This document shows positions 28,054 to 52,813 of a stretch of 64,000 nt of DNA, in pieces (the first letter of the stretch is position 1; each line of letters begins with the position of its first letter). The DNA comes from Photorhabdus laumondii subsp. laumondii. Its GTDB lineage: Bacteria > Pseudomonadota > Gammaproteobacteria > Enterobacterales > Enterobacteriaceae. Below the pieces are notes generated by a model. The model worked only from the letters and a program-made list of their open reading frames with translations. It was not told the DNA's origin and made no database searches. The position numbers and the translations under genes are program-made. The DNA lies in assembly GCF_003343245.1 (NCBI RefSeq), contig NZ_CP024901.1, forward strand, positions 1,364,001 to 1,428,000, written 5' to 3'.

Positions 28054-29025
28054 ATGCTACCTTACACGATTTGCTCTCCAAATAGTGAGATCACACTGTA
28101 TTCCTGGTTTAGTAATAACTGGAACGAGTGTAAAAAAAAGCTTAATGATCATGGTGCCTTACTTTTTCGTGGATTCAACATTGAAGATGTTATTGCATTC
28201 AGAGAAGCAGTATTAAGTGCAACTCCTGAAATATTGGATTATGAAGAACCATCAACACCACGTACTAAAGTCAATGATCGGGTGTTCACTTCTACAGAGT
28301 ACCCTGCTGATCAACGAATACCTTTGCATAATGAAATGTCTTACCGGCGTACTTGGCCAAAATATTTATGGCTGTGGTCACAAAAAGCTGCTGATTCTGG
28401 TGGTCAGACAACATTGGCAGACTATAGAAAAGTGCTCCAACGTCTCTCGAATGAAACCCGTGAAGAATTTAAAAGTAAAGGTGTTTTATATGAACGACGT
28501 TATAACACTGGGTTTGACTTAACTTGGCAGCAAGTATTTCAGACTGAGGAAAGGAGAATAGTTGAAGAGAAACTCAGATCTGAAGGTGTTGACTTTGAGT
28601 GGTTAGATGAAGAGCAGTTAATCACACGACAGGTTGTACAAGGTGTTGTGACTCATCCTTACACTGGGGAAGAAAGCTGGTTTAATCAAGCGAATCTGTT
28701 CCATCCTTCCAGTTTGCCTGAAGAAGTTCAGCTTGCTTTGGAAGCTGCACTCGGTGTGGGGATATTTCCACGAATGGCGAAATATGGCGACGGTACTCTT
28801 ATCAGCGCATCCACATTAATTGAAATTCGAGCCGCTATTGATGCGGAGACAGTGTACCCGGATTGGAAGAACGGTGATGTGGCGGTTGTTGACAACCTTG
28901 CTGTTGCCCATGGCAGGGAACCGTTTAGTGGAGCACGCAAAGTCTATGTGATCATGGCTTCACCAATGCATTGCAATTTTTTCCTGCCAAATGAGGACAT
29001 GAGATGCAAACATGGGACACTTTGA
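28054..29025 (+). CDS. Fe(II)/2-oxoglutarate dioxygenase, SyrP/TauD-like
   Basis: A 323-residue non-haem iron dioxygenase of the TauD/TfdA family, closest in style to SyrP-type enzymes that beta-hydroxylate carrier-bound amino acids. The iron facial triad is visible as PLHNEMSY (His and Glu) and the distal His in VAHGREPFSGARKVYV, which also supplies the 2OG-binding Arg. ALLFRGFNI is a conserved N-terminal block. It overlaps the next gene, an aspartate-type A-T protein, by 22 bp. This suggests the substrate is aspartate on that carrier (inference). AGGA lies 12 nt before the ATG. Confidence 0.85.
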   Translation: MLPYTICSPNSEITLYSWFSNNWNECKKKLNDHGALLFRGFNIEDVIAFREAVLSATPEILDYEEPSTPRTKVNDRVFTSTEYPADQRIPLHNEMSYRRTWPKYLWLWSQKAADSGGQTTLADYRKVLQRLSNETREEFKSKGVLYERRYNTGFDLTWQQVFQTEERRIVEEKLRSEGVDFEWLDEEQLITRQVVQGVVTHPYTGEESWFNQANLFHPSSLPEEVQLALEAALGVGIFPRMAKYGDGTLISASTLIEIRAAIDAETVYPDWKNGDVAVVDNLAVAHGREPFSGARKVYVIMASPMHCNFFLPNEDMRCKHGTL

Positions 29026-30788
29026 CAGAATCAAGAACTTGTGCAGATCTTTTTGCCAATTCAGTAACCACTTCAGATTCATTATATGCTGTACGCCATG
29101 ACAACATTGCACTTACTTATAAAGAATTGGCAGGGAAGGCTGGTGCCATTGCTCAATTACTCATTTCACAAGGAGTGGTAAATGGTGATGTTGTGGCAAT
29201 TTTTATGGAAAGATCTGCTACAAGTCTTGTAGCTGCATTGGCTATCTGGGCCGTTGGCGCTGCATATATTCAGTTAGAGGTCAGCGAACCCGACAGTAGA
29301 ATTAATGAATTAATAGAGCGTGCAGGCGGGGTTACAGTATTAACTGATGATTTGAACTGCCGACGTATTGAACACCATTCTTACATTAATCTTGATAGAC
29401 AAATATTAGATCCACAGGAATATATTCCGGTATCAGGTCGCAAAGCCGGTGATTTGGCTTATTTGGTATCAACTTCCGGTTCAACAGGAATTCCCAAACT
29501 TGTTGCAATTGAACACAGCAGTATCATGAATTACGTCTCGGCATTTGTTGAGCGTGTATCACCAATACCCTCCAGTTTGGCGAGTACAACAACTTTTGCT
29601 TCGGATCTTGGTAATACGTCTATTTTCGTTGCTCTGCTAACAGGTCGTACTCTTGAGCTTATCAATCGAGAAATGATGCTGGACTCAATCGCGCTTGCTA
29701 AGCATATCAGTAAATTTTCAATTGAAATGTTGAAATGCACGCCTTCGCAATTAGAGATGTTATCCAGAGAAGGTAACCTTTCGGAATTATTACCTGAAAA
29801 AGTACTTATTATTGGTGGGGAAGAACTAACTTCGGCACTTGCTAAAACTTTATTTGCAGCAAACCCCAATCTGAGAATATTTAATCACTATGGCCCTTCG
29901 GAAACGACTATTGGTGTATTAATGCATCAGCTAAATGGAACACGCCTAGGCAATGACTCAATTCCAATCGGTAAGCCCTTAAATGGTGTTGAAATAGCTG
30001 TATTGGACGACGCCAGGCGACCAGTTTCCCCCGGGGAAGTGGGGCAATTATATATAGGAGGGCGTGCGCTGGCCAGAGGCTATCATGGGGATCAAGATCT
30101 GACAGAAACTCACTTTGTTGATATCTTTGGACGTAGGTTTTATGCCAGTGGTGATTTGGTTAAACAAAACGAGCAAGGCAACTATTTATTTATCGGGCGC
30201 GTGGATCGCCAGCTCAAAATCCGTGGATATCGAATCCAGCCTAAAGAGATTGAGAATGCCTTGCTTGCTGAACCTGGGATTAAGCAGGTTGTTGTTACCA
30301 GTGTAAAATCTGAGTTTCACCAGATTGATGAACTGGTTGCTTATGTTGTGGGTACTGCGAGAGAGAATGAACTACTTTCAAACTTAGCTACCCGATTACC
30401 GGCCAGTCATATTCCATCCAGAATCTACAACATTGATGAAATCCTTGTTAATGCTAATGGAAAGCTTGATATAGCGCGTTTGCAGGCTTCTGTTAATACT
30501 GTTGAATCGATTTCTTCTGATGTTACCGTTCCTTGTAATGACATAGAAAAGCTTATCTTAGATATTTGGCGTGAAGTGCTTAAGCGTGATGATATTGATA
30601 TGCAGGCTAAATTCCTGGAGTCGGGAGGTGACTCATTCAAGTCGTTAGTGGTTTTTGGGCGATTACGTCGTCATTTTCCAAATCTCACTGTTGCCCAACT
30701 ATTTAAATATCCATCCATTGAGTCCTTAGCCAAAGTGCTCGGTGGCGAGAGTACAGCTCCCAATAAAACTAAGGTGGTACAGTTGTGA
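29004..30788 (+). CDS. NRPS adenylation-carrier didomain, aspartate predicted
   Basis: A 594-residue A-T protein without a condensation domain. The A domain spans about 20-500: A3 STSGSTGIPKL near residue 155, A5 NHYGPSETTIG, A7 YASGDLVK, A8 GRVDRQLKIRGYR, A10 NANGKLD. The T domain is about 515-580 with the phosphopantetheine serine in LESGGDSFKSL. Manual alignment to the GrsA pocket gives DLTKIGHIGK, which matches the recalled aspartate code DLTKVGHIGK except for one conservative change. A two-residue insert before the pocket Asp makes the A4 core look odd (FASDLGNT). It probably carries the Asp that the upstream dioxygenase hydroxylates. Confidence 0.85.
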   Translation: MQTWDTLTESRTCADLFANSVTTSDSLYAVRHDNIALTYKELAGKAGAIAQLLISQGVVNGDVVAIFMERSATSLVAALAIWAVGAAYIQLEVSEPDSRINELIERAGGVTVLTDDLNCRRIEHHSYINLDRQILDPQEYIPVSGRKAGDLAYLVSTSGSTGIPKLVAIEHSSIMNYVSAFVERVSPIPSSLASTTTFASDLGNTSIFVALLTGRTLELINREMMLDSIALAKHISKFSIEMLKCTPSQLEMLSREGNLSELLPEKVLIIGGEELTSALAKTLFAANPNLRIFNHYGPSETTIGVLMHQLNGTRLGNDSIPIGKPLNGVEIAVLDDARRPVSPGEVGQLYIGGRALARGYHGDQDLTETHFVDIFGRRFYASGDLVKQNEQGNYLFIGRVDRQLKIRGYRIQPKEIENALLAEPGIKQVVVTSVKSEFHQIDELVAYVVGTARENELLSNLATRLPASHIPSRIYNIDEILVNANGKLDIARLQASVNTVESISSDVTVPCNDIEKLILDIWREVLKRDDIDMQAKFLESGGDSFKSLVVFGRLRRHFPNLTVAQLFKYPSIESLAKVLGGESTAPNKTKVVQL

Positions 30789-33700
30789 CGACACTATATT
30801 CAGATGATGCGGTCGCCATAATTGGCGTCTCTTTTCGGTTACCACAATGCTCAAATTGGCGTGAATTGATTGATATTTTGGCTGACGGTCGGGACTGCAT
30901 TCGCCCAATACCTGAAAGTCGGGTGGCTAATACGGGGCAAATTCTTACAGGCAATGAGAAAGAGGGGGGATGGCTTGATGAAATTACCGGGTTCGATCAC
31001 CGTTATTTTGGTATTGCACTAAGTGAAGCCGAATATATCGATCCCAGACAACGTATAGGGCTTCAACTGGCTACAGAAGCGATTGTCAATGCGGGATACA
31101 CTCTGAAAGAGTTATCTGATGCGCGTACAGCAGTACTTGTTGCTGCGCACGGCGGGCCGCATCCAGATCTTTTTCAGTCGTTATCGGTACAGGGAAAAGC
31201 CAATCCGTTCGCTTTCATCGGCAGCTTGCATGCTTTTTCGGCGGGTCGCATTGCGTATCTGCTTGATCTGCGTGGCCCAGTTTATGCCATAGATACGGGA
31301 TGTTCATCATTTTTGGTCGCACTTCACGAAGCACGGAACAAGATTCTGACAGGGGAGGCTGATTTTGCTCTGGTAGGAGGCTGTGAACTTGTTTTAGGTA
31401 CCTTGCCTCAGAGTAGTAAGAACTCAAGTGGGTTAGGGGTTGAGTCAATGACAGATCGATGCCGTCCTTTCGATGCAATGGCTGATGGTGCTGGATTTGG
31501 GGAAGGAGGCGGTTTTGTTCTGCTTAAACGGTTGAGTCGTGCACATCAAGATCATGATGTTATCCATGCTGTCATACGAGGGAGTGCGATTAATCATGAC
31601 GGTGGCCGTAGCAATGGTATCACTGCACCTAGCAGCATCGCACAAACCGAGGTGATTACGGCAGCATGGCATCAAGCAGGGGTCACAGCTACTGATATTG
31701 GTTACATAGAAGCTCATGGTACGGGCACTAAAATTGGTGATCCGATAGAAGTACAAGGTTTAGTCGATACATTTGCCGCTTATGACGTGCAACAGGAGTC
31801 TTGTGTCATCTCTTCTGTAAAAAGTAATTTTGGACATTTAAGTGGTATGGCTGGGTTGGCGGGGCTTGTTCGTATTATAGCTCAATTCCGCACTGGTCAG
31901 ATTTTCCCTACGGCTCACTTCCAACAGTTGAATCCATTGTGTAGATCTACAGAAGAGCTGCCGATACGTGTCTCTTCTTCTTGTGAGCCGTGGCCACGTC
32001 AAGGTCAGCGTCCTTACTGCGCGGGAATCAGTGGGTTTGGGCTAAGTGGTACTAATGTGCATTTAGTCGTTGAAGAGGCCCCCTCAACTTTAAGGCACAA
32101 AAAATACGAGATAAATGAGAGATTGGTGCTGATATCGGCACAGACGACACAAGATCTCAGCACTTACCTAAGTGCTATAACTAATGCGTTATCTTCAACC
32201 GAAGCATCAATTGACGAGATTGCCGATATATTAATGTTGGGACGGGAGCATTTCCCATATCGTTGGAGCTGTGTGGCTTCATCTGTTTCGCATTTAGTGC
32301 AGCAACTCACGAACCACGGTTCAATCTCGCTATCTTCATCTTCACCATCATCTTCGTTATCTGTTGGTCTTATTTTTGATGAATGCTCTCCAATAGATAT
32401 TCAACTATTGATGAAACGAGGAGAAACATTTCCAGCTTTTCATCGTGTAATAAAACAAGCAGAGAACTTATGTTCAGGGAAAACTTGGACGCTTCGGCAG
32501 CGCTGGATTATTTGGTTGTTGGGACATCACGCGGTATTGACAGCGTTTGGGGTGACAATTGACTTATTACTGGCCTACGGTGTGGGGAAATTGGCCGCAC
32601 AGGTCGTCGATGGTGGTCTTGAATTTGTTGATGCATTGCGTCTTGCTGATGAACCGGTCACTGATTCAACATTTGATCACCAGCGTTTGCAAACCTTGTT
32701 GCAAGAACAGGCTGAACTATGCTTGGTGAGATTCAGTCGTTGTGGTGAGCTTGCAACAGCCATTAACACGTTGGGTTATCAGTCATACGATAGTGAAAGA
32801 TCTCTGTTGACATTGCTTGGAGATTGGTTTGTCAATGGCACCAATCTGGATTGGCAGCAAGGGTGTGAACGCAAGATAAATCGTCGTCTTGAACTGCCAT
32901 TTGCTCCTTTTGTTGCCACCTATTGCTGGCCAGAGACTATTGAGAACTCTGCTATGGTTTCTGATGTTGTACCGCACACTTCGATATCAAATTCAGGAGA
33001 AAATGTTGAAGAGATATTGTTGACTCAGGTCAGAGAAGTGCTGAAAGAGCCGAAATTAACACTTGATGATGATTTTTTTGCGGCTGGAGGTAATTCACTT
33101 AATGGTGAGCAGCTTGTGGTTCGGCTGAACGAGGTATTAGGTACGGATCTGAAATTGATGGATTTGTTGGATTGCCTGGATCTGAATGAGTTTTATCAAT
33201 TGGTGAAAGACAGTGTTCAATTATCCTCCGTATCTACAACACCGGAGATAGAAACAAGGAACAATAAACATGTACTTTCTGGTCAGCAATTAGCAATTTG
33301 GGCGGCAACGGAAATTGCTGGTGAGTCTGGCGCTTATAATGTTCCCGCTGCTCTGCTTATCAATGCGGAGGCGGATGTTGCCTGGCTGGAGAAAACGCTA
33401 ACTGAACTTGTCTTACAACAGTTGATGCTGCGTTGTAGTCTGGAATACAACGAACAAGGCGTTAACCCGGTAATCCATCCTCCGATGCAGGTCAAACTGG
33501 TTCATAGTGAAGTCGATTTAACAAAATACACTATTGCAACGGGCATACCCGTTCTGACTCAGCGTCTACAGCAGATGGTTGAAACGCCGCTCTCACCTTA
33601 TGGTATTCCTCCCACACGATTCGAACTGTTGCAAGTGAATTTTAGCGATGGAGTACGTCAAGCACTATTGCTGAATTTTCATCACCTGTTTTTTGATGGC

Positions 33701-34588
33701 TGGTCATGGCGATTGGTATTGGCAGCTCTTAGTGGTGGCAAGATATCTCCGCCTGTGAACGACTATTTAAATTACGCGATGGAGCAATATACCTTACTTG
33801 AAAGTGAACAGGGTCGAAAACTGGAGGCTTTCTGGTATGGATATTTGGCAAACATCCCAATTCTGCTGCTGCCTTGTGATGGTGAGGGCGGGACAGCATC
33901 TAACCTCCAGGGTGCTAATTTACCTGTGATGATATCGAAGGATGTTACCGAGAGGTTGAGGCAGATGGCGATGAATTCTCGCGTAACGGTACAAATGATA
34001 ATGTTGACAACTTGGGTGGCATTACAATGGCAGATAAGTGCGCAGCATGATATTTGTGTTGCTATGCCGGTGGCTAACCGGCAACTGAAAGATGAAAACA
34101 CCATTGGTTGTTATGTTAATACCGTGATTGTGCGTGCACGGCTTGATCCACACCAGCCATTTCACGTAGTGCTGAATGCGGTTAGGCAGGCATCACTCAG
34201 CGCGATTTCACATAGTGCATTTCCTTCTGATCGAATCCAGAAACTGATGGCAAATACCTCCTATCATCTCACCATGTTTGATTTTCAGAATGATGTTGAT
34301 CCTATTAGGGTATTAGGGGGAAATGGAGCCGTTGTCGAATTGCTGGATGTCGATCCTAATGGCGCAAAATATCCGCTCAATCTTACCTGTATTGAATATG
34401 GTGATGAGCTTCAAGCGCGATTGGAATATTCCGCTGCCCTTTTCTCACAAGACACGGTTTCTCGCTGGTTGAATATTTATATAGAGGCACTGACACGGCT
34501 GATGACATTAGGCGAAGAAACCACTCTTTTCGCCTTGTTTGATGGTCAAGACGATGTTCTTAGCGATATTCCAGATTTTCAGTTCTAG
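30785..34588 (+). CDS. hybrid PKS-NRPS: KS - inactive AT - carrier - C
   Basis: 1267 residues with a GTG start overlapping the previous stop. KS about 8-430, with the full C-H-H triad (DTGCSSFL, EAHGTGT, KSNFGHLSG). About 440-717 is an AT-like region ending in the usual post-AT linker (LELPFAPFVATYCWPE). The nucleophile motif GHSxG is replaced by AYGVG in LLLAYGVGKLAAQVVDG, so the AT should be inactive and malonyl loading must come in trans. A carrier domain follows (about 735-815, FFAAGGNSLNGEQ). The C domain is about 830-1267 with intact HHLFFDGWSW. No KR, DH or MT is present, so a beta-keto unit is expected. Confidence 0.88.
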   Translation: MTTLYSDDAVAIIGVSFRLPQCSNWRELIDILADGRDCIRPIPESRVANTGQILTGNEKEGGWLDEITGFDHRYFGIALSEAEYIDPRQRIGLQLATEAIVNAGYTLKELSDARTAVLVAAHGGPHPDLFQSLSVQGKANPFAFIGSLHAFSAGRIAYLLDLRGPVYAIDTGCSSFLVALHEARNKILTGEADFALVGGCELVLGTLPQSSKNSSGLGVESMTDRCRPFDAMADGAGFGEGGGFVLLKRLSRAHQDHDVIHAVIRGSAINHDGGRSNGITAPSSIAQTEVITAAWHQAGVTATDIGYIEAHGTGTKIGDPIEVQGLVDTFAAYDVQQESCVISSVKSNFGHLSGMAGLAGLVRIIAQFRTGQIFPTAHFQQLNPLCRSTEELPIRVSSSCEPWPRQGQRPYCAGISGFGLSGTNVHLVVEEAPSTLRHKKYEINERLVLISAQTTQDLSTYLSAITNALSSTEASIDEIADILMLGREHFPYRWSCVASSVSHLVQQLTNHGSISLSSSSPSSSLSVGLIFDECSPIDIQLLMKRGETFPAFHRVIKQAENLCSGKTWTLRQRWIIWLLGHHAVLTAFGVTIDLLLAYGVGKLAAQVVDGGLEFVDALRLADEPVTDSTFDHQRLQTLLQEQAELCLVRFSRCGELATAINTLGYQSYDSERSLLTLLGDWFVNGTNLDWQQGCERKINRRLELPFAPFVATYCWPETIENSAMVSDVVPHTSISNSGENVEEILLTQVREVLKEPKLTLDDDFFAAGGNSLNGEQLVVRLNEVLGTDLKLMDLLDCLDLNEFYQLVKDSVQLSSVSTTPEIETRNNKHVLSGQQLAIWAATEIAGESGAYNVPAALLINAEADVAWLEKTLTELVLQQLMLRCSLEYNEQGVNPVIHPPMQVKLVHSEVDLTKYTIATGIPVLTQRLQQMVETPLSPYGIPPTRFELLQVNFSDGVRQALLLNFHHLFFDGWSWRLVLAALSGGKISPPVNDYLNYAMEQYTLLESEQGRKLEAFWYGYLANIPILLLPCDGEGGTASNLQGANLPVMISKDVTERLRQMAMNSRVTVQMIMLTTWVALQWQISAQHDICVAMPVANRQLKDENTIGCYVNTVIVRARLDPHQPFHVVLNAVRQASLSAISHSAFPSDRIQKLMANTSYHLTMFDFQNDVDPIRVLGGNGAVVELLDVDPNGAKYPLNLTCIEYGDELQARLEYSAALFSQDTVSRWLNIYIEALTRLMTLGEETTLFALFDGQDDVLSDIPDFQF

Positions 34589-34590
34589 AT

Positions 34591-37500
34591 GTGGATAAAA
34601 AAATGACAACTATGAAGCTGATTGATCGTGAATACTGGCTGATGCGGGTTGGTGATTTAACTAAGGCCGCTGCCACAACCGCAGATATTTTTCCTCACCA
34701 TGAGGGATCTCTGGTAAGTGCGCAATGTCCGCTTTTCCCCACCGTTACTGACCGGCTAAAACAAGTAGCGGGCAACTCTGAATTGCTGACATGGGCAATT
34801 TTGGCGGCAGTGACTAGTATCGTGTTGCGCCGTATTGGGGGCGTATCCTCTGTTGTGTTGCATATTAACACCGAACAAGGCAAGCGTTTGCCTGTCTTAT
34901 TGACGGTACCTCCTGCCGTGACTTTTCGTGAATGGTTAAGCCATGTTCGCATGGCCGCTGTTGAGGCTATTAATCATGGATCGATAGACAAGGCGCTGTT
35001 GATGCCGTTTTTGGAGCATTTCATGCCTATTGTCGTTAATTGCGCTCAGACGGAAACTGGGATAGCTATCGAGCTTATTGATGGTGTAGTGAGTGTGAGT
35101 GGAATTGTTGCTGCGACTCAGACGCTTCATCACTTAGCGGCAGGTATCGCGACACTGTTAAACAAGGGGCTTTTCGATCTCGACATCTGTCTAAATAATA
35201 TGGCTATCGTCGATGACGCGATGCAAACAAAATTGCTAGCCAGATTCAATTCCCAACCTGATTATAGCTCAGGAAAATCATTTTATCGGCTAGTGTTGGA
35301 GCAAGCGGAAAGTAACCCCCATGCGATAGCTCTCCGTGATAAAACAGAATCGCTTACCTATCGGGAACTATTTCAGTTGGCGTTATCGGTAGCATTGAAG
35401 TTAAAAAATGCTGGCATTAGTGCCGATGATATTGTGGCGCTTTCAGCACCACGCAGCGCTCGATTTATTGCTGTTGCTACCGGTATTTTCTTCTCGGGTG
35501 GTGCTTACTTACCTATTGATCCAACTTTACCGAAAGCCCGGCAACAGCACATGCTAAAACATGCGAAGGCATTGATTGCAGATCATGTTGTGGATATGCC
35601 GCAGATAGTTTGGTTCTCATTCAGTGAACTTAGTTTTCAAAGCCCGGTTTTAGTGGATGGTGATGAGATAAAGTTACTTAATCAGCAGGTAACTGAGCCA
35701 TCACCAAGCGAATTAGCTTATGTAATCTTTACTTCAGGCTCGACAGGTCTTCCTAAAGGTGTAGGAATTGAACATCGTTCTTTCCTTAATTTACTGGTAT
35801 TTCAGGTCCAAAACTGTGAATTGAAACTAGGGGTGACATTGCCGCAAACAGCACCCATTTCGTTTGATATCTCAGTTTGGCAAATGTTTACTGGATTGAC
35901 CGTAGGTGCGACGGTTTCCATTGTCTCTGATGATGTTGTAAAAGATCCTCAAGAGTTAATTCAATACATTATTGAGCAGAAATTTGAATATATTGAACTA
36001 GTTCCTTCGCTCATTGCAGTTATCCTGGATATCCTTGAACAATCGATTTCATTGAAGATGCGGGTTCAGCGGCAGTTACGTGGGATGATCTCAACTGGAG
36101 AAGTGTTAAGTACGGATCTAGCACGTCGCTGGCATCAGTGTATGCCAATGGTGACACTGCTAAATGCTTATGGTCCCGCTGAGTGTACCGATGATGTGAC
36201 TCAAGGAAAGGTCGAAGAGCAATCTGATGGGCTATATTGTCCAGTGGGTACGCCTTTGCCAAACGTGACAATTTATGTATTAGATAAAGATTTTCAACTT
36301 GTTCCTCCAATGGTCGGTGGTGAAATTTTCGTTGGTGGGCCGAATGTCGGGCGAGGATACATCGGCAGTAATCGCTTCACGGCGGCGGCTTTTTTGCCGG
36401 ACCCATTTCTGCCTGTCCCGGGTGCCCGTATGTATCGGACGGGTGATCGTGGTCGTTGGCGAGAGGATGGCATATTGGAGTGCCTTGGCCGGGCCGACAA
36501 CCAGGTGAAGATTCGTGGTCGCCGCGTCGAACTTGGAGAAATTGAAGCGGTGCTGGCAAACCATCCGGATGTAGCGATGTGTGCGGTTGAACTTGTTGAT
36601 ATGAGTGGCTTTGAGCAATTAAGTGCTTTCGTGACGCAGACGAGTGATACCGTTGTGGATGCCAGATCATTGAGTAAATTTTTGGCTGAGCAATTGCCGG
36701 ATTATATGGTGCCGAGCAAGTTTTATTTTCTTGATGCACTGTTATGTAATGCTAATGGTAAAGTCGATCGTAAGCAATTAAAGGCACTGGCAAAACAACA
36801 ACCTGAATCTGCTTCTTATGTTGCACCACGCAGCAAGTTGGAACAACAGCTTTGTGATTTATGGTGTAAATACCTCAAGCTAGCCAAAGTGGGCATCACG
36901 GATGATTTTTTCGCTTTGGGTGGGGATTCCATTATTGGTATCCGTCTGATACATGAGGCGGGCTCTTTGGGGATCAATTTGCGTCCTCGTCATGTGCTTG
37001 AACATCCAACTATCGCTTCACTTGCAAAACTGGCGAGTACCAAAGGTGAAATGGCAGCAAATTCAACTCCGCGTATAGAAAAAGCACCATTGACATCAAT
37101 CCAACAATGGTTTTTCGAGCAGCGATTTTCTGAACAGCACCATTGGAATCAGTCACATGTGATCAGTACAACGGAGCCGTTAAATGCAGAAGCATTATCC
37201 TTGGCGATACAGTCATTAGTTGAGCACCATGAACAATTGCGAGTTTGTTTTCCCAAAGAGAAGGGAAAGCATTATCAAGCCTTGCGCTCGCCTTATGACA
37301 ACTTACTTTGGTTCGCTGAATCAGATTGTTCGGAAGAAACCATCGCCAATGAGGCTCATGCATCATTATCAATCGAGGAAGGACCGTTACTACGAATTGT
37401 AATGTTGGATGATTTTCGAGTTTTGCTGACATTACATCACTTAATTGTGGATCAAGTTTCCTGGCAAATCTTGCTGGAAGATCTTGAAACTGCGTATCAG

Positions 37501-39600: not shown

Positions 39601-39601
39601 T

Positions 39602-41356: not shown

Positions 41357-42999
41357 CGGGGTTAACCCACTTTTTCCCATCAAAAATGTTGCCTTCTTTA
41401 CTGAGTTTAGTGCGCAGATTTTCCTTTCTTTACTTCATCAGCATGGTTATATGGACGCTGATCCACGGCTTACCTTTGGTCGTTGGTTTTGCCATCAGCC
41501 AGCTTCTTGATAGTGCTGTTATCGATCCCGTAGGCTCAGCGGTTTGGTGGCTATTGGCATTGGCGGTAGGCTCAATGGTATTACGCTCAGTGATACTGAT
41601 TTTTGGCTTACAGATTGATTTTACCCTTATTTTTAAGGTCAGCGCATATCTTAAACAACGCATTCTGGAGGGAATAAATTGCAGCCACTCTGGCGCGGAT
41701 CTGGGTCTTTCTCAAGGGGATATGCTCAACCGTATTCGTAATGACAGTGATGAAGTAGCCTCTTTTCTCGGTTGGACAGCGGATTTCTTCTACCGAGCGG
41801 TACTATTGTTGATAGCACTTGTGGTGTTGCTGAGTACTGACATTGTGACGACATTGGCGCTTTTACCGATGGCTGGTGGTTTGTGGCTGGGCATAGCTCT
41901 CAAACATAAGGTCGGAGCATTACAGGAGGAGAAACGTCAATATCAAGGCCAAATTGCGGGTCGTATCACCGACATATTGGCAGGAATCCGTGACCTTCGC
42001 CTTGGTGGAAAGTTGGATCTGCATATTGAGCGACTTTCGGCAAGTTTTGAACGTCGTCGGGCGGTGCAGGCAAAGCATCAAATGTTCACTGATCTGCTGT
42101 CGGGGCTATTTCGTAACATCGTGATGCTAGGTACATCTATTGTTTTGATTATTGTCAGTACCCGAATTGTCAGTGGCGATTTCACTATTGGTAAATTGGC
42201 TCTGTTTTTGACTTATATCGGTTGGGTCAGTGAGCAGATCTTCTTTTTCGGTCGCGCCTTGGCTAACTATAAAAATGCCGATGTCTGCTACGAGCGAATT
42301 CAGCCACTGTTACAGACAGAGCAGCCTGCCAGCGAAGCCCCTATTGCTGATGACATCCTGAAATCACTGACAGTGAGGGGGCTTTGTTGCAATAGCGATA
42401 CGCAACCTATTTCGTTTACAGCCACACCCAATCAACTGATTGTCGTTAATGGAGAAGTGGGTTCCGGTAAAAGTCGTATGCTTCGCGGTCTGCTCGCGCT
42501 GGAACGACACTTATCAGGAAGTGTGCTTTGGAATAACAAAGAAGTTTGTGGAGACGTCGATTGGTGGCAAAGCCCTAAAGTTACTTATGCCCGTCAAGGT
42601 GCTGGCTTTGTTGGCGGTACTGTTCGAGATAACTTGGCACTGGGTAACGACGCTGTCAGTGATGAAACTATGGAGCGGGCGTTAACGGCAGTATATCTGA
42701 AACCGGGTTCATCTGATCTTCCTGAAGGGCTTGATACTGTGCTGGGGTCCGGTAGTGTCAAACAGTTATCAGGAGGCCAGCGCCAACGTTTGACATTGGC
42801 CCGTATGCTATGTCATTCAGCCGAAGTTTATGTCGTCGATGATTGCGATTCATCTCTGGATACTGATACCGCCCGAGCCATATGGTCAGCACTGCCTAAA
42901 AAGTGGTCGGGGATCTGGATTGTAGCCTCGCAAAATATTGACCTGCTTGCTCAGGCGGATCAAGTGGTGACTATCAAACGGCGGAGCGAAACATCATGA
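41353..42999 (+). CDS. ABC exporter half-subunit 2 (degenerate Walker B, canonical signature)
   Basis: A 548-residue TMD-NBD half-transporter. Walker A is GEVGSGKSRM, signature LSGGQRQRLTLARM, and Walker B YVVDDCDSSLD with Asp where the catalytic Glu normally sits. Paired with the upstream subunit this gives one canonical and one degenerate ATP site, the pattern of heterodimeric ABC exporters. The start overlaps the previous stop, and the stop overlaps the mbtH-like start (both ATGA). Confidence 0.9.
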   Translation: MTGLTHFFPSKMLPSLLSLVRRFSFLYFISMVIWTLIHGLPLVVGFAISQLLDSAVIDPVGSAVWWLLALAVGSMVLRSVILIFGLQIDFTLIFKVSAYLKQRILEGINCSHSGADLGLSQGDMLNRIRNDSDEVASFLGWTADFFYRAVLLLIALVVLLSTDIVTTLALLPMAGGLWLGIALKHKVGALQEEKRQYQGQIAGRITDILAGIRDLRLGGKLDLHIERLSASFERRRAVQAKHQMFTDLLSGLFRNIVMLGTSIVLIIVSTRIVSGDFTIGKLALFLTYIGWVSEQIFFFGRALANYKNADVCYERIQPLLQTEQPASEAPIADDILKSLTVRGLCCNSDTQPISFTATPNQLIVVNGEVGSGKSRMLRGLLALERHLSGSVLWNNKEVCGDVDWWQSPKVTYARQGAGFVGGTVRDNLALGNDAVSDETMERALTAVYLKPGSSDLPEGLDTVLGSGSVKQLSGGQRQRLTLARMLCHSAEVYVVDDCDSSLDTDTARAIWSALPKKWSGIWIVASQNIDLLAQADQVVTIKRRSETS

Positions 43000-43175
43000 A
43001 TTACAGGGTGGTATGTAACAAAGAGGGTAAGCACTCCATTTGGCCTGAAGGGCGGATATTACCGTTAGGGTGGCAAAATGTGGGTTTTTCGGGATCAGAA
43101 CAAGAATGCCTGGATTGGATAGCTACATATTGGAGTGATCCTAAATTGAAAGTTTCCGCAGAGACGTTGGAATGA
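42996..43175 (+). CDS. stand-alone MbtH-like protein (short)
   Basis: 59 residues, starting ATG inside the previous stop (ATGA) and ending inside the next start (ATGA). MbtH-like proteins bind and activate or stabilise NRPS A domains. The N-terminal signature is intact: NKEGKHSIWP, then LPLGWQNVGFSG, then CLDWI. The usual C-terminal WTDMRP is degenerate here (YWSDPK). A second MbtH module with the complementary pattern is fused to the ATP-grasp protein two genes on. Confidence 0.88.
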   Translation: MNYRVVCNKEGKHSIWPEGRILPLGWQNVGFSGSEQECLDWIATYWSDPKLKVSAETLE

Positions 43176-43936
43176 AACGTGTTCAACTGACGCCAGGATT
43201 ATGGAATTACTGCGATCGACAGCAGACGACAATGACTGTTGTGATTGCGCCTTTTGGCGGCGGCAGTGCTTATTCTATGACCGACTGGGTTCAGCAACTG
43301 TTGACTGATAGTTATCGAGTGCTGGTGCTTCAGTATCCGGGACGAGGTTCTCGAAGTATTGAACCACTCCCTTTATGTATAAGAGATTTGGTGGCTACCG
43401 CGGCAAAAGATGTATTGCTGCATACACAGGGGCCTCTTCTTCTTATTGGTCATAGTATGGGCGCTTTGTTATGTCATGAACTGGCATTACTTTTAGAACA
43501 AGCTAACCGAACCGTTGAATATTTGGTCTTATCAGCAGCACGTCCACCACATTTGAATAGTATGGTGCCAGAAGAGATACTCCGTATGAGCCGGGAAGCT
43601 TGGATTGAAGAGCTAAAAACCAATATAGGAAATGAAGATAAGAAACTGCTTCATGCGGATGTGCTTGATCTCATGTTGCCTGTATTGCGTGCTGATTATT
43701 TGTTAGTGGCTGAGCACAAACAAGCCAGTGGCAAGGTACATTGCCCTATTTTAGCCATTGGCGGTGATCGTGACCCGTGGGTGAGCCCATATCATTTACA
43801 AGAGTGGCAATCGCTGACACATGATTCTTGCCAATTAGTCATGTTCCCTGGAGATCACTTCTATTATCGAGATCAGCTTTACGACATTTATTTGTATATC
43901 CGTCAAACTTGCTTAAAAGAAGGAAGTCTGCGCTAA
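43172..43936 (+). CDS. type II thioesterase
   Basis: A 254-residue alpha/beta-hydrolase of the RifR/GrsT type, which removes wrong or stalled acyl groups from NRPS/PKS carriers. The nucleophile elbow is [11 protein letters not shown]. The acid and base residues are in GGDRDPWV and [22 protein letters not shown] and LQYPGRGSR are family blocks. Start and stop overlap the neighbouring genes by a few bases, so it is translationally coupled within the operon. It is not a releasing in-line TE. Confidence 0.92.
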
Positions 43937-45459
43937 TGAGTGATGAAAATACCCAAACACAAATGAAGTATTCATCCCGTTTTGAAGGTTTGACGGATGA
44001 ATATTTGGTTGTAATAAATGATGAAGAGCAATATGCCTGTGTTCATTCTGAATGGCCTGTCGCTACCGGATGGCGAGCGACCGGTTTTAGTGGGACGCAA
44101 GAAGCATGTAAAAAATGGATTGAAGAAGTTTGGACCGATATGCGCCCGGCTTCTCTGCGTAATGGCCCACAATCCTTTGATAATCAACCTCTGATAGTGA
44201 TTTATGATGAAGGCGCAGCCCTTCCCAAAGATATTGTCACTGAATTGAATGGGGTTGCACCACTTGTACTTGTTATCAATTCAAACGAACACACAAGAGA
44301 GCGCATATCCTACTTTTCACGATTTGGTCACGTAGTTGATGGTTCTGATATTGCAAGGGCGGTATCAGAACTTGCTCACCTTAATCCTGCGGGGATTGTG
44401 ACATTTAGTGAGCGTGCCTTACGTCTTACAGCTACGCTGGCAAAACACTTGAATTTGCCTTTTCACAATCTCGAAACGGTCTATCGGCTTACTGACAAAT
44501 ATAAGCAGCGAGTGGCTTTACAAGAGGCTGGCATTGAGTCGATAAGATTCTACCTCATTAACACTGTGTCAGATTGGGAGCAAGCTGTTGAACAGGTTTG
44601 TCTTCCCGCAGTGTTAAAACCAGCCTATGGTGGTGGCAGCATCGATACTTATCTTATTGAAGATCCGCAAACAGGAAAGAGCCTTGTAGAAAAACTGCTT
44701 TCAAATAAACAGGTTGGATTTGATGGTGGTCGTTCACTGGTATTGGAAGAGTTCCTCCAGGGGCGGCCATCGTTGCCTTTTGGTGACTATGTCTCGGTTG
44801 AGAGCTTGGTGGTTAACGGAGAGATTAAGCATATAAATGTGACCGGCAAGATGCCACTTAGTCCCCCTTTTCGTGAATATGGTCATATCTGGCCATCAGT
44901 TTTAAGTGATAGTGAACAAAACCAAATCTATGCATTAACGTCAAGTGCCATCAACGTGTTAGGGGTTAATCGGGGGATCACCCATACCGAGCTGAAGTTG
45001 ACCGAGCAGGGACCCAGGATCATTGAAGTAAATGGCCGAGTGGGCGGGGGTATCAACGAGATGGCCAAAATCAGCCTCAATATTAGTCTGCTTGAAATGG
45101 CTGCACGATTAGCGCTGGGAAAAATGATTGATCTCCCTGTGTTCAATCCTGAGCACGTCTATTTCAATATCTGCCATATTGCGCCAACACGTCCATGTGA
45201 AATTCTCCGAATTAATGGGGAAGATGAACTTCTCTCTCTTGAGGGTGTATCGTCATATCGCCCATATGTATGGGCAGGAGCTACTTTGCCGGGAGGCTCA
45301 CAAACCAATGAAATTAACATGGTGTTGGGCAAAGTGGATAACCATAAGGCATTTCTGGATATTTATCAGCGTATGGGGCAGTGCTTGCGTTTTCATGTTC
45401 GATTTATGGACAGTGAAGCCGTTCAAATTCTTGATGCGCATGAATTGGGGGCGATATGA
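43936..45459 (+). CDS. MbtH - ATP-grasp fusion ligase
   Basis: 507 residues, ATG overlapping the thioesterase stop (TAATG). Residues about 20-70 are an MbtH-like module: [22 protein letters not shown], and perfect [12 protein letters not shown], though the SLWP position reads ACVH. About 190-430 is an ATP-grasp domain ([62 protein letters not shown]), of the kind that forms amide bonds via acyl phosphates, e.g. dipeptide ligases. A joined MbtH/ATP-grasp chain is unusual. It may modify or release the product; the substrate is unknown. Confidence 0.85.
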
Positions 45460-46691
45460 ATCTTATTTCAAACGTAGCTAAAGTGCCGGATAACATAAAT
45501 CTCACTGACCCCCTGACTCATTTACGTCCTGATATAGATAACATCTGGCGGCAATTACGTAATGAGTCACCTGTCGCTTGGCATCCTGCGGTCAATGGTC
45601 AATCAGGATTTTGGGTTGTCAGCACCCATGAGTTAGCTATGCGGGTTTACCGTGATAGTCAAACCTTTACCTCTGTTCGTGGAAATGTCATGGCTACACT
45701 GTTACATGATGGAGACACAGCGGGTGGTCGCATGCTTGCAGTGTCTGATGGAGATAGACACCGTCAAATCCGTAAAGAGTTGTTAAAGTCTTTCAGCCCT
45801 AAGAACCTGATGTCGGTACAGAAAAGAATCAAAAATGCGATGCATGAGCTTGTACGTAATGCAGTAACATCCGGGCAATGTGACTTTGCCACTGATGTAG
45901 CACCACATATTCCGTTAGCGGCCATATGTGACATTTTAAAAGTTCCAGAATCGGATCGAGCAAAACTATTTGTCAATGCAAGTGCAGCACTGGCTTCGAA
46001 CTCTTTGTCAGTTGATAAAGTAGATACCCGCCTCGCCAGAAATGAAGTGTTGATGTATTTCTATAAATGTATTCAGACTCGCAAAATCGCGCCATTGGAA
46101 GATGATCTTATAAGTAACCTGATAGCAATGACTCAAAACTCCCTGGCATTAACAGAAGAAGAACTCGTCTTCAATTGTTATAGCGTGTTACTGGGTGGCG
46201 ATGAAACAACTCGGTTGGCATTGATAGGGATCATAAAAGCATTTGCCGAATATCCAGAATGCTGGGCTCAATTGCGACGTGGTGAAGCAGAAATTAGTAA
46301 GGCAGTAGAGGAGTTGTTGCGATGGACCACGCCGGCTTTACATGGTGGTCGGACCGCAACGGTAGATGTTGAATTAGGCGGTCAGCAGATTAGGGCTGGT
46401 GATATTGTCATTGTTTGGAATCGGTCTGCTAACTTTGATGAAACCGTCTTTACTAAACCCAATCAGCTTGATCTGAATCGGAGTGATAATCGGCATATTT
46501 CTTTTTCATATGGGGCTCATTTTTGCCTTGGTGCCGCTCTTGCCAGAATAGAAATTATTGCACTGCTGGAGGCGCTTGTGGAGCTCGTTGATCAGATCTC
46601 TTTGAGTGGAGAACCCAGCCCTATCTATTCGACTTTTCTATCTGGTTACCATCGCTTGCCAGTCAAATTGACTGCTGCACATTATTCATAG
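45456..46691 (+). CDS. cytochrome P450
   Basis: A 411-residue soluble bacterial P450. The I-helix oxygen-binding motif is LLGGDETTR. The ExxR region lies in [15 protein letters not shown]. The haem-thiolate loop [15 protein letters not shown] carries the ligating Cys. The start overlaps the ATP-grasp stop (ATGA), so it belongs to the same operon and probably oxidises the peptide or a carrier-bound amino acid. No dedicated ferredoxin gene is nearby. Confidence 0.93.
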
Positions 46692-46700
46692 GAATAAATA

Positions 46701-49700
46701 ATGAAAGAACGCATAGTGTTGCATGAACGAATAGTGTTGCATGAACAATTTGATGCGATGGTTGAGAATGCTCCTCACAAGATCGCCATTAGTGCACATC
46801 ATGTAGAAATGACATACCAAAATGTGCAAGACCGTGCTACCCAACTTGCCTATCGACTAATGGACTTAGATATCGGGGCTGAAGATGTGGTTGGAATCCA
46901 TATTGAGCGCTCTTCTGACATGATCATAGCGATGTTGGCTGCGCTTAAAGTTGGTGCTGCTTATTTAGCACTCCCACCCGATTATCCGACTGAGCGACTT
47001 CGTTATATGATAACGGACTCGCGTACAAGGTTGGTGTTAACTCGAACTATGATGAAAGATTCAACGGTCATTGAAAATGTTGCCACTGTTTATATCGATG
47101 AAATCCAATCTGTAGTGCCAAAAATCCTGCCACAAGTTACCAGTCAACAGCTAGCTTACGTTATCTATACCTCGGGAAGTACAGGACGCCCCAAAGGAGT
47201 GGGAGTGACTCATCATGGCGTTACCAACTTCGTTAGCCAGAAACAGCAGTACGTTCATTTCGGACCTAATGAAAAAATATTGCAGTTAGCACCTGCGGCT
47301 TTTGATGCTTCTGCCTTTGAAATATGGGGAGCATTGACTAATGGCGCGGCATTGGTATTGGCTTCTCCTTCATATCAAGCCATTGATGAGCTACCGAAAT
47401 GCCTTGTTGAACATGGAATTACGATATTGCTACTGACACCTGCCTTATTTCACGTATTGGTAGATTATCGCGAAGAGGCTCTGGATAGCGTACCTCAATT
47501 GCTTGTTGGTGGCGATGCAATGTCAGTCACTCATGCGTTTAAGTATTTGTCCAGGAAGCAGAAATTAGGCAAACACTTTTTATTTAATAACGTATATGGC
47601 CCGACTGAAGGAACGACCTTGGTGAGTAGTTACTCTATGTCATCATTAAGTATTGATGCGATAAAATCTCCCTTAGGTAAACCTATCGTCAATGCGGAAA
47701 TGTACTTATTGGATGAGATGTTAAGACCGGTCAGGCCAGGTGAGCGTGGTGAAATCTATATTGGGGGACAGTCTGTCGCACGGGGGTATTTATATCAACC
47801 TGGGCTAACTAGCCTGCGTTTTTTACCTGATCCTTTCTCCACCCAACCAGGAGCCAGAATGTTTGCTACTGGTGATGAAGGCGTATTGTCGAATGATGGA
47901 CTGATTGAGTTTGTGGGCAGGCTTGATGATCAGGTCAAAGTGCGGGGTCATCGAGTTGAGCTGGCAGAAGTAGAGCATGCAATAAAAAGCTGTCAGGATG
48001 TGAGTGCTGTTTGTGTTGTGCTGAACATTGACAGTGATCGCCATGTTGAACAACTGGTCGCCCATTATACAACTCACATTGATCATACAACTCATAAAAA
48101 CACTGATGTTGAGCAAGCTATCATCACTCGTGTTCAAACATTGTTACCCAGCTATATGTGGCCTAGTCAGTTTATTCAGCATGAACAGCTACCTTTAACA
48201 AGCAGTGGTAAAGTGGATCGTCGATTTTTGATGGGTTGGAAAGAGGCTGAGAGATTAGAAGAGGTGGTATCCGGTGAACTCTCCATGACAGAAGCACTGG
48301 TGGCAGAGATCTGGCAACAAATTCTAGGGCCATTTGATGTTGTGCCTGATGCTGATTTTTTTGCGTTGGGAGGCGATTCGTTATTGGCTATTCAGGTTAT
48401 CGCGGAAGCTGAAAAACGAGGACTCAATCTGACACTCTCTACCTTATTTCGTACCTCGACGCTTAGGGCGATGTGTAAAGATTTGGTGCTCCCAGAACAA
48501 ACAGATAATGGACTAACTCGCAATCCGGCATTGCGTGGGGTTTGCCGCGGTTTGGCACAAACAGAAGAAGCTCTCAGTCAGCAGAATGAGAACCCACTGA
48601 TAAATGAAACGGATAAGCAAAGGTTGCCTGTTAATATCGAAACTGCTTATCCGGCGACGAGATTGCAGCTAGGGATGCTGTTTGAGGGATTATACAGTGG
48701 TAAAGCAATCTACCTTGATGTTATTGCTCGGGATGTCAACTTGCCACTGGATGAAAAAATACTTCACGACACGCTTCAGTCAATAGCCAAAAGGCACCCG
48801 GTTCTCAGAACAAAATTTGATTTGGCCTCTTTTAGTGAAGTGATGCAATTGGTTGAATCACTACCATCATTGCCACTTATAGTGGAAAACTACACAAATC
48901 TTGATGATGAACAGTTGGCTGCACGTCACGAAAAAGTAATGGTTGAGTTAAGCCAACCATTTGATCCTGAAGAGGCTCCTTTAATGAGGGTACATGCGGC
49001 GGCATTGAATGAAGGACAATTTCGGTTAGCTTATGCCTTTCATCATGCGATCCTTGATGGTTGGAGTGAGTCTGTTTTTATCCTTGAGCTTTTGAGATTG
49101 TATCAAGCCAATTTAGTTAGCGAGTCTGTTTTATTGGAGCAACCGGCACCATTGTCAGAGTTTGTCAGACTTGAGCGAGAAGCGCTCGATAACGACAAGG
49201 CGAAACAGTTTTTTAGTCAATATTCAGCTAAAGAAAAAACGGATAGATATCAAGATACTGATTATAGGAAAGCAGTACTGGTCTTGCCGGAAAGAACAGT
49301 GGAGCAATTGTTAAAAAATGTATCAGATTGGGGCATTCCGTTAAAAAGTATGTTTTTTGCTGGTTTCTATCTGACAACAGCTCATCAGTTACAAGATATT
49401 GACTTTGTTGCAGGGATGTCTGTTAACGGTAGGCCTGAGATGGAAGGTGCGGATTTAACTCTTGGACTGTTCCTTAATCATATTCCGATAAAGTTGAATC
49501 TTGACTCTGCTAATAACTGGCAGGCACTGGCAAGACAGTCTTTCGATGCTGAAAAAGAAATATTGCCCTTTAGACGCTTTCCATATTCAGAAATACAAAC
49601 CATGTTAGGAGGGCCACCCTTCGAGGCTGCATTTAGCTACGTTCATTTTCATTCTCGCAATGAGTTATTAGAGCAAGGGTTGGTGAATAGTGATGAAGAT

Positions 49701-49883
49701 GTGCGTGACCATACCAGCTTACCGATTAGGGTTGAGTTGATAAATGATTTGAAAGGCGAAGGTATTTTAATAAATGTGACAGCAGATGAAAAACGTTATG
49801 GCACGGGATTCGCTTTAGCGTTGGCCGAACGACTTAGTGAAAAGATAGAAGACATAGCATTTGTATCCGAGCAGATTATTTAA
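46701..49883 (+). CDS. NRPS A-T-C module
   Basis: 1060 residues: A about 10-510 (YTSGSTGRPKG, FDASAFEIW, NVYGPTEGTT, FATGDEGVL, GRLDDQVKVRGHR, SSGKVDRR), T about 530-600 (FFALGGDSLLAIQ), C about 645-1055 with intact FHHAILDGWSES. The A-domain pocket reads DAFLLGVTLK by hand alignment, closest in feel to branched-chain aliphatic codes, low confidence. It begins with A and ends with C, so it fits best as the initiating protein that passes its amino acid to the aspartate carrier at 29004. The first codons contain an 18-bp tandem duplication (ERIVLH twice, 46707-46742). There is no thioesterase. Confidence 0.9.
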   Translation: MKERIVLHERIVLHEQFDAMVENAPHKIAISAHHVEMTYQNVQDRATQLAYRLMDLDIGAEDVVGIHIERSSDMIIAMLAALKVGAAYLALPPDYPTERLRYMITDSRTRLVLTRTMMKDSTVIENVATVYIDEIQSVVPKILPQVTSQQLAYVIYTSGSTGRPKGVGVTHHGVTNFVSQKQQYVHFGPNEKILQLAPAAFDASAFEIWGALTNGAALVLASPSYQAIDELPKCLVEHGITILLLTPALFHVLVDYREEALDSVPQLLVGGDAMSVTHAFKYLSRKQKLGKHFLFNNVYGPTEGTTLVSSYSMSSLSIDAIKSPLGKPIVNAEMYLLDEMLRPVRPGERGEIYIGGQSVARGYLYQPGLTSLRFLPDPFSTQPGARMFATGDEGVLSNDGLIEFVGRLDDQVKVRGHRVELAEVEHAIKSCQDVSAVCVVLNIDSDRHVEQLVAHYTTHIDHTTHKNTDVEQAIITRVQTLLPSYMWPSQFIQHEQLPLTSSGKVDRRFLMGWKEAERLEEVVSGELSMTEALVAEIWQQILGPFDVVPDADFFALGGDSLLAIQVIAEAEKRGLNLTLSTLFRTSTLRAMCKDLVLPEQTDNGLTRNPALRGVCRGLAQTEEALSQQNENPLINETDKQRLPVNIETAYPATRLQLGMLFEGLYSGKAIYLDVIARDVNLPLDEKILHDTLQSIAKRHPVLRTKFDLASFSEVMQLVESLPSLPLIVENYTNLDDEQLAARHEKVMVELSQPFDPEEAPLMRVHAAALNEGQFRLAYAFHHAILDGWSESVFILELLRLYQANLVSESVLLEQPAPLSEFVRLEREALDNDKAKQFFSQYSAKEKTDRYQDTDYRKAVLVLPERTVEQLLKNVSDWGIPLKSMFFAGFYLTTAHQLQDIDFVAGMSVNGRPEMEGADLTLGLFLNHIPIKLNLDSANNWQALARQSFDAEKEILPFRRFPYSEIQTMLGGPPFEAAFSYVHFHSRNELLEQGLVNSDEDVRDHTSLPIRVELINDLKGEGILINVTADEKRYGTGFALALAERLSEKIEDIAFVSEQII

Positions 49884-50014
49884 TTATCGTCGGATAGTTA
49901 ATTTTTTGGTATTTGATTTCACAGTTTTTAGTTGCTGTAAACGCAGAAATCTAATCTACGAGGCTGACTTACATTAGCCTCATTCAGAAAACATTTGGAG
50001 GAGAACTTAAACAG

Positions 50015-50455: not shown

Positions 50456-50496
50456 TCGTCAAATTTGGGGGTTCTTCCACAGGAGAGCGTAAAAAT
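50452..50496 (+). pseudogene. possible aspartokinase N-terminal remnant
   Basis: Fifteen codons read LIVKFGGSSTGERKN, matching the N-terminal aspartokinase motif VxKFGG(S/T)S. The frame runs straight into the segment shared with IS copy 2, so the rest of the gene is absent. Aspartokinase feeds aspartate semialdehyde to a Dat enzyme, so its location after the dat remnant makes sense. The match is short. Confidence 0.4.
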
Positions 50497-50646
50497 GAGA
50501 GCATAAAAAAGTCTGGGGCACTTGAGTTATTTAGCGGTAAAGTGGGCGATTCAACCGGACTATTACCCATTATCGGCCCATGAATACTTATACGTTAAAG
50601 TGGCTTCTTTAGCTGCTTTACCACATAAATGCCCCAAGGTAATGAG
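50497..50646 (+). repeat. 150-bp segment duplicated upstream of both IS copies
   Basis: Present again at 52814-52963 with one observed substitution (GGGCGATTC versus GGGCAATTC). It contains imperfect inverted repeats (GGGGCA with TGCCCC; GGTAAAG with CTTTACC). It may be part of the mobile element outside its inverted repeats, or a shared target sequence. Confidence 0.7.
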
Positions 50647-52745: not shown

Positions 52746-52752
52746 CCTGTTT

Positions 52753-52798: not shown

Positions 52799-52813
52799 AC
52801 TCAGCAACTAGGG

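What the first reader, a model, noticed from the sequence alone, without database searches (positions are those of the whole stretch)
28054..49883. Non-collinear NRPS/PKS line that becomes logical when the last gene is read first
Every C domain sits at the end of a protein: A-T-C (46701), A-T (29004), KS-AT*-ACP-C (30785), A-T-E-E (34591). Read in that order each C domain meets its acceptor, giving amino acid - (hydroxy)Asp - C2 - D-Dab. Read in gene order the final C domain has no acceptor. The mixed architecture, with no in-line thioesterase, does not match a product I recognise.
Basis: inference. Interest (0 to 1): 0.75.

Follow-up and report, generated by a model that had tools for sequence, protein, structure and literature searches.

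The report
Malonomycin-like tetramate-type gene cluster
An insect-pathogenic Photorhabdus carries an assembly line that most likely joins amino acids, one acetate unit and diaminobutyrate into a tetramic-acid compound related to the Streptomyces antibiotic malonomycin; the general kind is known, this version and its product are not.

Summary
The reported domains are there, and reading the last gene first is the most sensible order, but the architecture is recognisable: malonomycin-like. A-domain codes suggest Asp and Dab; X. mauleonii has an intact Dab transaminase right after the A-T-C gene, the window a broken remnant. "A-T-E-E" is half-C–A–T–E1–E2, and E2 is no second epimerase: the 10 E2 domains sampled form one clade (100/100) and none keeps the catalytic glutamate. 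Among the 56 best homologues of the KS protein, 23 are natural KS-ACP-C-T-E2 fusions; a C-terminal P[DE]FxF tail occurs in 27 of 33 unfused and 0 of 23 fused ones. This fixes the order C2 → Dab → E2. The module has no ketoreductase and its AT is dead. Best reading: X–(hydroxy)Asp–C2–D-Dab closed to a 3-acyl tetramate, E2 being the likely ring-closing domain. Two genome surveys list a "malonomycin" cluster in one isolate of the sister species P. akhurstii; that it is this cluster is inferred. Different from malonomycin as recalled: Dab, TauD, a P450, MbtH fused to ATP-grasp, and no VKDC-family match. A-T-C → Asp rests on elimination.

The parts
28054..29025 (+). TauD-family Fe/2-oxoglutarate dioxygenase, probable beta-hydroxylase of the carrier-bound Asp
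   Evidence: PF02668 E 4.2e-40; overlaps the Asp A-T gene; 88% identical in X. mauleonii
29004..30788 (+). A-T module, code DLTKIGHIGK (Asp); C-terminal tail TKVVQL
   Evidence: tail TQVVQL in X. mauleonii, TEVIEL in S. clavuligerus
30785..34588 (+). KS - dead AT - ACP - C, no ketoreductase found; C-terminal docking-type tail IPDFQF
   Evidence: KS Cys/His/His invariant in 57 of 57 aligned rows; AT serine position is Gly 54, Ala 2, Asp 1
34591..35235 (+). half C domain (C-terminal lobe only) at the N-terminus of the Dab protein
   Evidence: hhalign probability 95, E 9.3e-9, alignment of 8 rows
34591..39600 (+). half-C - A (code DIWEITADDK, Dab-type) - T - E1 - E2
37057..38274 (+). E1, probable true epimerase (keeps catalytic Glu, ELEGYGR)
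38275..39597 (+). E2, epimerase-derived terminal domain without the catalytic Glu (ELGGHGR); proposed ring-closing / release domain
   Evidence: one clade with 9 others, 100/100; Glu absent in those 10; Val at that place in 22 of 23 fused homologues, the last garbled there
39602..41356 (+). ABC exporter half
   Evidence: 44% to S. clavuligerus cluster
41353..42999 (+). ABC exporter half
   Evidence: 51% to S. clavuligerus cluster
43172..43936 (+). free (type II) thioesterase, probably editing
   Evidence: PF00975 E 1.3e-29; residues 43-178 missing in X. mauleonii
43936..45459 (+). MbtH domain fused to ATP-grasp amino-acid ligase (BacD-like)
45456..46691 (+). cytochrome P450, closest solved structure 4l0e/4l0f/4pwv/4pxh (recalled: P450sky, beta-hydroxylates carrier-bound amino acids)
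   Evidence: 405 bits over residues 9-405
46701..49883 (+). A-T-C, code DAFLLGVTLK; probable first module
   Evidence: its C domain pairs with that of the T-C protein of S. clavuligerus (100/99)
50005..50382 (+). remnant of diaminobutyrate transaminase (broken); open 437-aa gene at the same place in X. mauleonii

Best explanation
A malonomycin-type NRPS/PKS line. A-T-C (46701) loads an aliphatic amino acid, which the neighbouring P450 probably beta-hydroxylates on the carrier; its C domain joins it to Asp on the A-T protein (29004), which the TauD enzyme probably hydroxylates. The KS (30785) adds one malonyl-derived C2 unit supplied in trans (own AT dead) and, with no ketoreductase, leaves a beta-ketone. 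Its C domain joins this to Dab on the 34591 protein; E1 sets D-Dab. The bound N-(beta-ketoacyl)-Dab is then closed and released as a 3-acyl tetramic acid with an aminoethyl side chain, most likely by E2. MbtH supports the A domains, ATP-grasp probably adds a further amino acid, TE edits, the ABC pair exports. Shown by sequence: gene content, codes, dead AT, no KR found, E2 clade, tails and fusions, linked Dab gene. Inferred: all chemistry, the A-T-C first step, the E2 function, the tetramate.
For: Domains and codes. EctB-type Dab transaminase over cut-off directly after A-T-C in X. mauleonii, remnants in the window and in P. namnaonensis. Order: of the 56 best KS homologues 23 carry one carrier motif and an E2 motif, without an A core motif, after the C domain; P[DE]FxF tail in 27 of the 33 unfused, 0 of those 23; A-T tail alike in 3 of 3 looked at. 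E2: 10 of 10 rows one clade, 100/100, no epimerase Glu; in S. clavuligerus it is the only E-type domain after the same Dab-type code. A beta-ketoacyl-ACP joined by a C domain to a carrier-bound amino acid is the described tetramate set-up (PMC10161427, passages); a C-terminal condensation-like domain was proposed for tetramate formation in malonomycin (PMC11310079, passages). TE has lost its middle in X. mauleonii and has no match in the S. clavuligerus stretch (tblastn, 1e-3), so it is unlikely to be the conserved release enzyme. 'Malonomycin' listed in P. akhurstii NN168.5 (PMC10676414, PMC9491552, passages).
Against: No product known; the malonomycin paper is not held and no mlo sequence was identified, so similarity to it was not measured. 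The two surveys seem to treat the same isolate, do not say in the passages seen which genes matched, and one gives its listed partial matches only as 2-83% similarity. No VKDC-family match in the genome. No conserved tail links A-T-C to A-T. S. clavuligerus has the same Dab-type code beside PALP and OCD (SbnA/SbnB-like, Dap-type) genes, so the code alone does not tell Dab from Dap. PMC10161427 names reductase, TE or free cyclases as closers, not an E-type domain. AlphaFold of E2 was too poor to use (mean pLDDT 48.9). The tool flags odd composition in several E1 and E2 rows of the tree. Role of ATP-grasp is open. KS is cut or incomplete in both other Photorhabdus genomes that have it among 12 held.
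Confidence: 0.6

Rival explanations
1. A-T-C does not start the chain. It makes a beta-hydroxylated amino acid that its C domain (or the ATP-grasp enzyme) attaches to an amine of the already released Asp-C2-Dab tetramate.
For: A-T-C shows no conserved tail; in S. clavuligerus the matching protein is a free T-C without A domain, next to the ATP-grasp gene; BacD-type ligases join free amino acids (similarity; function recalled).
Against: The Asp A-T then has no donor and the A-T-C no carrier-bound acceptor; malonomycin (recalled) carries an amino acid on its Asp-derived residue, as a chain start would give.
Confidence: 0.2
2. The line runs in gene order, Asp - C2 - Dab - X, with A-T-C as last module.
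For: Gene order only.
Against: Nothing would condense Dab-peptide with X: E2 groups with epimerases, not with C domains (10 C rows on their own side, 100/100). The final C would have no acceptor.
Confidence: 0.05
3. E2 is not a cyclase but a platform that recruits the TauD or P450 enzyme (like interface or X domains), and the product is a linear or hydrolysed beta-keto peptide.
For: E-like domain without catalytic Glu, TauD and P450 in the cluster. The interface- and X-domain analogy is recalled.
Against: E2 is kept in the S. clavuligerus cluster, where the 43.8 kb stretch has no TauD match and only one weak, partial P450 match (24%, residues 217-360) at its far edge, and in the KS-ACP-C-T-E2 fusions, whose surroundings were not seen.
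Confidence: 0.15
4. The cluster makes a siderophore that uses beta-hydroxy-Asp.
For: TauD next to an Asp A-T module.
Against: No receptor or iron-uptake gene among the ten gene products scanned; the beta-keto unit and E2 are not explained.
Confidence: 0.05

Closest known systems
Malonomycin (mlo) biosynthesis, Streptomyces rimosus (recalled; Law et al. 2018 not held)
   Same: Recalled: Ser - carboxy-Asp - C2 - Dap built by a hybrid NRPS/PKS line; a C-terminal condensation-like domain was proposed for the tetramate (passage in PMC11310079)
   Different: Probably Dab, with an EctB-type gene linked in X. mauleonii; TauD and P450 instead of a vitamin K-dependent carboxylase (no family match in the genome); aliphatic-type A code; MbtH fused to ATP-grasp
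Unnamed cluster on Streptomyces clavuligerus plasmid pCLA1 (L032)
   Same: ABC pair, A-T, KS-ACP-C, half-C-A-T-E2, ATP-grasp, T-C, 36-51% identity; an MbtH-like reading (45%) directly before ATP-grasp
   Different: No E1; no TauD or TE match; MbtH not fused; T-C lacks A; PALP and OCD genes follow; other code in the A-T protein
Photorhabdus temperata / P. tasmaniensis homologues (P0003, P0243)
   Same: KS-ACP-C 52% over full length; half-C-A-T-E1-E2 with E2 52% identical
   Different: Gene surroundings not seen
Other tetramate lines (epifadin; reductase-like, TE or free Dieckmann cyclases)
   Same: beta-ketoacyl-ACP + C + amino-acid carrier, Dieckmann closure (PMC10161427 and PMC11310079, passages)
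   Different: Closed by other kinds of domain; their sequences were not compared with E2 here

Membership tests
Malonomycin biosynthesis | Asp-loading module followed by a KS-ACP unit without ketoreductase (recalled feature) | tested here: met
Malonomycin biosynthesis | Vitamin K-dependent carboxylase making carboxy-Asp | tested here: not met
   no PF05090 match in the genome (the model is named HTTM, that VKDC falls under it is recalled); none among the ten gene products
Malonomycin biosynthesis | Dap as tetramate-forming residue | tested here: inconclusive
   leans to Dab: EctB-type transaminase linked in X. mauleonii, remnants in two Photorhabdus; code DIWEITADDK alone does not exclude Dap
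Malonomycin biosynthesis | Ser as N-terminal residue | tested here: inconclusive
   code DAFLLGVTLK resembles Val/Ile codes (recalled), not Ser
Malonomycin biosynthesis | sequence similarity of the synthases to Mlo proteins | not testable with these tools
   no mlo sequence identified in the collections; paper not held
Tetramate-forming NRPS/PKS line | beta-ketoacyl-ACP condensed to an amino acid on a carrier, followed by a terminal domain | tested here: met
   by anatomy only; function of the terminal domain inferred
Tetramate-forming NRPS/PKS line | tetramic acid product | not testable with these tools
   no metabolite data found for this cluster
Epimerisation domain (for E2) | catalytic Glu of the EGHGR motif | tested here: not met
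Epimerisation domain (for E1) | HHxxxD and EGHGR-type Glu | tested here: met
   HHLIVDQ, ELEGYGR

The most novel reading that the evidence does not exclude
E2 is an epimerase-descended domain that lost its catalytic Glu and became a dedicated ring-closing (tetramate-forming) release domain, shared by Photorhabdus, Xenorhabdus and several actinomycete genera in one chemically little explored family of split NRPS/PKS lines, of which this cluster is a Dab-using, probably doubly hydroxylated branch.
Probability: 0.45. Interest if true: 0.7.

Novelty: new variant of a known kind. Interest (0 to 1): 0.5.

Why it matters
If this is plu1210-1222, as its position suggests, it was given an inducible promoter in 2014, with no product in the passages seen, and was noted as not cloneable in E. 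coli without mutations that ablate expression, suspected because of toxicity (PMC4381043). A concrete prediction, an X-(OH)Asp-C2-D-Dab tetramate, tells chemists which masses and labels to look for. The E2 clade would be a sequence handle for related lines and a defined test of whether an epimerase fold can close and release tetramates.

Tried and rejected
Gene-order reading: rejected because E2 is not a C domain. Thioesterase as conserved ring closer: disfavoured because X. mauleonii has lost its middle. Siderophore: no uptake genes among the ten scanned. Tandem epimerase: rejected. I first took the single S. clavuligerus E-type domain for E1; motif and tree put it with E2. I first believed S. 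clavuligerus had no MbtH; a tblastn with short frames allowed found one before ATP-grasp. PMC8069389 (passages) reports polycyclic tetramate macrolactams in S. clavuligerus, another class. AlphaFold of E2 from 4 rows was too poor and was not used; no fold search was run. Gaps in P. akhurstii L003 (AT1 379-427, KS 627-1091) are probably assembly faults, since a 1265-aa protein with 34 members exists (P0001); not checked further. Rows dropped: of 20 own-genome C-domain stretches fetched, 4 were not readable by my filter and 4 went into the tree. Literature searches without a paper: plu1217-plu1222; Photorhabdus + ATP-grasp + MbtH + P450 + nonribosomal.
Full report
WHAT WAS CHECKED. The window is bases 1364001-1428000 of a 5,687,677-base single-contig genome with 59 condensation-type matches, some in a 16,367-aa frame. 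The best database match to the E2 region of the 34591 protein (100% identical, 39 member sequences) is named Photorhabdus laumondii. The cluster holds the only PF00668 matches listed between 1.297 and 2.223 Mb, so by position it is probably plu1210-1222 of strain TT01; this is inference. PMC4381043 (passages) says an inducible promoter was put before plu1210-1222, gives product data only for plu2670 in the passages seen, and says that plu1210-1222 and plu3123 could not be cloned in E. [quoted passage not shown] It was the only paper found for 'plu1210' with Photorhabdus.

ANATOMY. Pfam confirms TauD, A-T, KS-ACP-C, A-T-E-E, two ABC exporter halves, a free thioesterase, MbtH with ATP-grasp in one frame, P450 and A-T-C: ten genes on one strand. 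The finding does not mention the thioesterase, the MbtH domain, the half C domain or the Dab gene remnant. Substrate codes are DLTKIGHIGK (Asp), DIWEITADDK (Dab-type) and DAFLLGVTLK (aliphatic); the meaning of codes is recalled. The KS has its Cys and two His in 57 of 57 aligned sequences, while the AT serine position is Gly in 54, Ala in 2 and Asp in 1 (the window plus the 56 best homologues), so malonyl must come in trans. No ketoreductase match was seen.

DAB. A TIGR00709 fragment with a stop lies at 50005-50382, directly after A-T-C. P. namnaonensis has a 190-aa fragment at the same place, and X. mauleonii an open 437-aa gene there, over the cut-off of the EctB model (599.6 against 552.2 bits). 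Three other matches over the TIGR00709 cut-off exist in the window's genome, so Dab can be supplied from elsewhere.

E2 IS NOT AN EPIMERASE BY MOTIF. Standard E domains carry a Glu in EGHGR; in the rows used here 10 of 10 E2 have Gly or Val there and 5 of 5 E1 keep Glu. Among the 23 fused homologues 22 have Val and one (P0011) is garbled there. A 30-row tree (IQ-TREE) puts the 10 E2 rows on one branch (100/100) and the 5 E1 rows on another (100/100), both among epimerases (the 5 standard E rows are not one group) and apart from the 10 C rows (100/100). I chose the rows: 5 proteins with E1 and E2, 5 with E2 alone, 5 standard E, 10 C. The tool warns of odd composition in several of them. Lentzea (P0245) has E1 and E2; S. 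clavuligerus, Amycolatopsis (P0008) and Nocardia (P0029) have E2 only, straight after the carrier. The C domains of A-T-C and of the S. clavuligerus T-C protein pair (100/99), as do the two KS-linked C domains (100/99).

ORDER OF ASSEMBLY. Of the 56 best homologues of the KS protein, 33 are shorter than 1400 aa and 23 longer. All 23 long ones carry, after the C domain, one GGDS carrier motif, no A core motif, and an HHxxxDLYSW motif of E2 type: KS-ACP-C-T-E2 fusions. The tail P[DE]FxF occurs within the last 12 residues in 27 of the 33 short and 0 of the 23 long ones. The simplest reading is a docking tail needed only when the partner is a separate protein, so the KS protein hands its chain to the Dab protein. 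The A-T protein ends TKVVQL here, TQVVQL in X. mauleonii and TEVIEL in S. clavuligerus, suggesting a second docking tail, to the KS protein. A-T-C shows no tail shared with S. clavuligerus. Only elimination (A-T has no other donor, A-T-C no other acceptor) and the recalled structure of malonomycin put it first.

FAMILY. S. clavuligerus plasmid locus L032 holds ABC-ABC-(A-T)-(KS-ACP-C)-(half-C-A-T-E2)-ATP-grasp-(T-C), 36-51% identical, with an MbtH-like reading (45%) just before ATP-grasp and no TauD or TE match, and PALP and OCD genes after it. KS and ATP-grasp homologues share the same longest-contig length in nine cases besides X. mauleonii, compared by eye, seven of them with actinomycete names; this suggests linkage. 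MbtH and ATP-grasp are in one protein in 5 of the 120 listed of 566 homologues (P0121-P0125). In the genus 3 of 12 held genomes, the window's own included, match the KS protein at 1e-200; one of the others starts at residue 244, the other covers residues 1-323. A sample of 394 genomes of the order gave only the window's own at 1e-150. P. luminescens L004/L037 is degraded; beside P. namnaonensis KS no TauD or A-T was found. X. mauleonii is 78-88% identical gene by gene, apart from its shortened thioesterase (75-79%).

CHEMISTRY PROPOSED. A beta-ketoacyl-ACP, a C domain and an amino-acid carrier are the usual set for Dieckmann-closed tetramates, with reductase-type, TE or free cyclases as closers (PMC10161427, passages). 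PMC11310079 (passages) states that a C-terminal condensation-like domain was proposed for tetramate formation in malonomycin. PMC9491552 (antiSMASH 5.1.2; passages) and PMC10676414 (passages) list malonomycin in what seems to be one P. akhurstii isolate, NN168.5; the review PMC11547657 repeats it (passage). P. akhurstii carries the window's cluster at 91-99% by segment, KS 96%. That these are the same genes is inferred. The P450 matches 4l0e/4l0f/4pwv/4pxh over its length; that this is the skyllamycin enzyme acting on carrier-bound amino acids is recalled. TauD beside the Asp module suggests beta-hydroxy-Asp. ATP-grasp resembles BacD; its target is open.

VERDICT. A real cluster, open in the window, of malonomycin-like architecture, not a malonomycin cluster proper: no carboxylase-family match and probably Dab in place of Dap. 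New variant of a known kind. The most interesting part is the E2 clade.

Noticed in passing
54302-60240 (-) and 60476-62407 (+): Nitrilase-centred gene set (Nit6803-family nitrilase, MSMEG_0568 radical SAM, MSMEG_0567 GNAT, sll0787 AIR synthase-like, MSMEG_0569 flavoprotein, MSMEG_0572), a conserved nitrile/cyanide-related set (recalled), beside a sigma-54-type regulator.
   Followed up: partly
50713-51717 and 53030-54034: Two IS110-family transposase frames of the same length and, by eye, the same sequence beside the cluster end (only the first was scanned); between them a pair that by eye looks like a HigB/HigA-type toxin-antitoxin (52046-52838, -).
   Followed up: no
46701-49883; L037:11029-13851; L064: P. 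luminescens A-T-C pieces show two T domains in tandem; the window seems to keep the first plus a remnant of the second, X. mauleonii the second only (by eye).
   Followed up: partly
50440-50640: Possible further gene remnant after the transaminase (one frame reads VKFGGSS, aspartokinase-like by eye), as expected if an Asp kinase once fed Dab.
   Followed up: no
15815-22768: Na+-translocating NADH:quinone reductase (nqr) type operon with apbE.
   Followed up: no
L037:444-10767: Prophage tail-like genes (by eye) directly beside the degraded A-T-C in P. luminescens.
   Followed up: no
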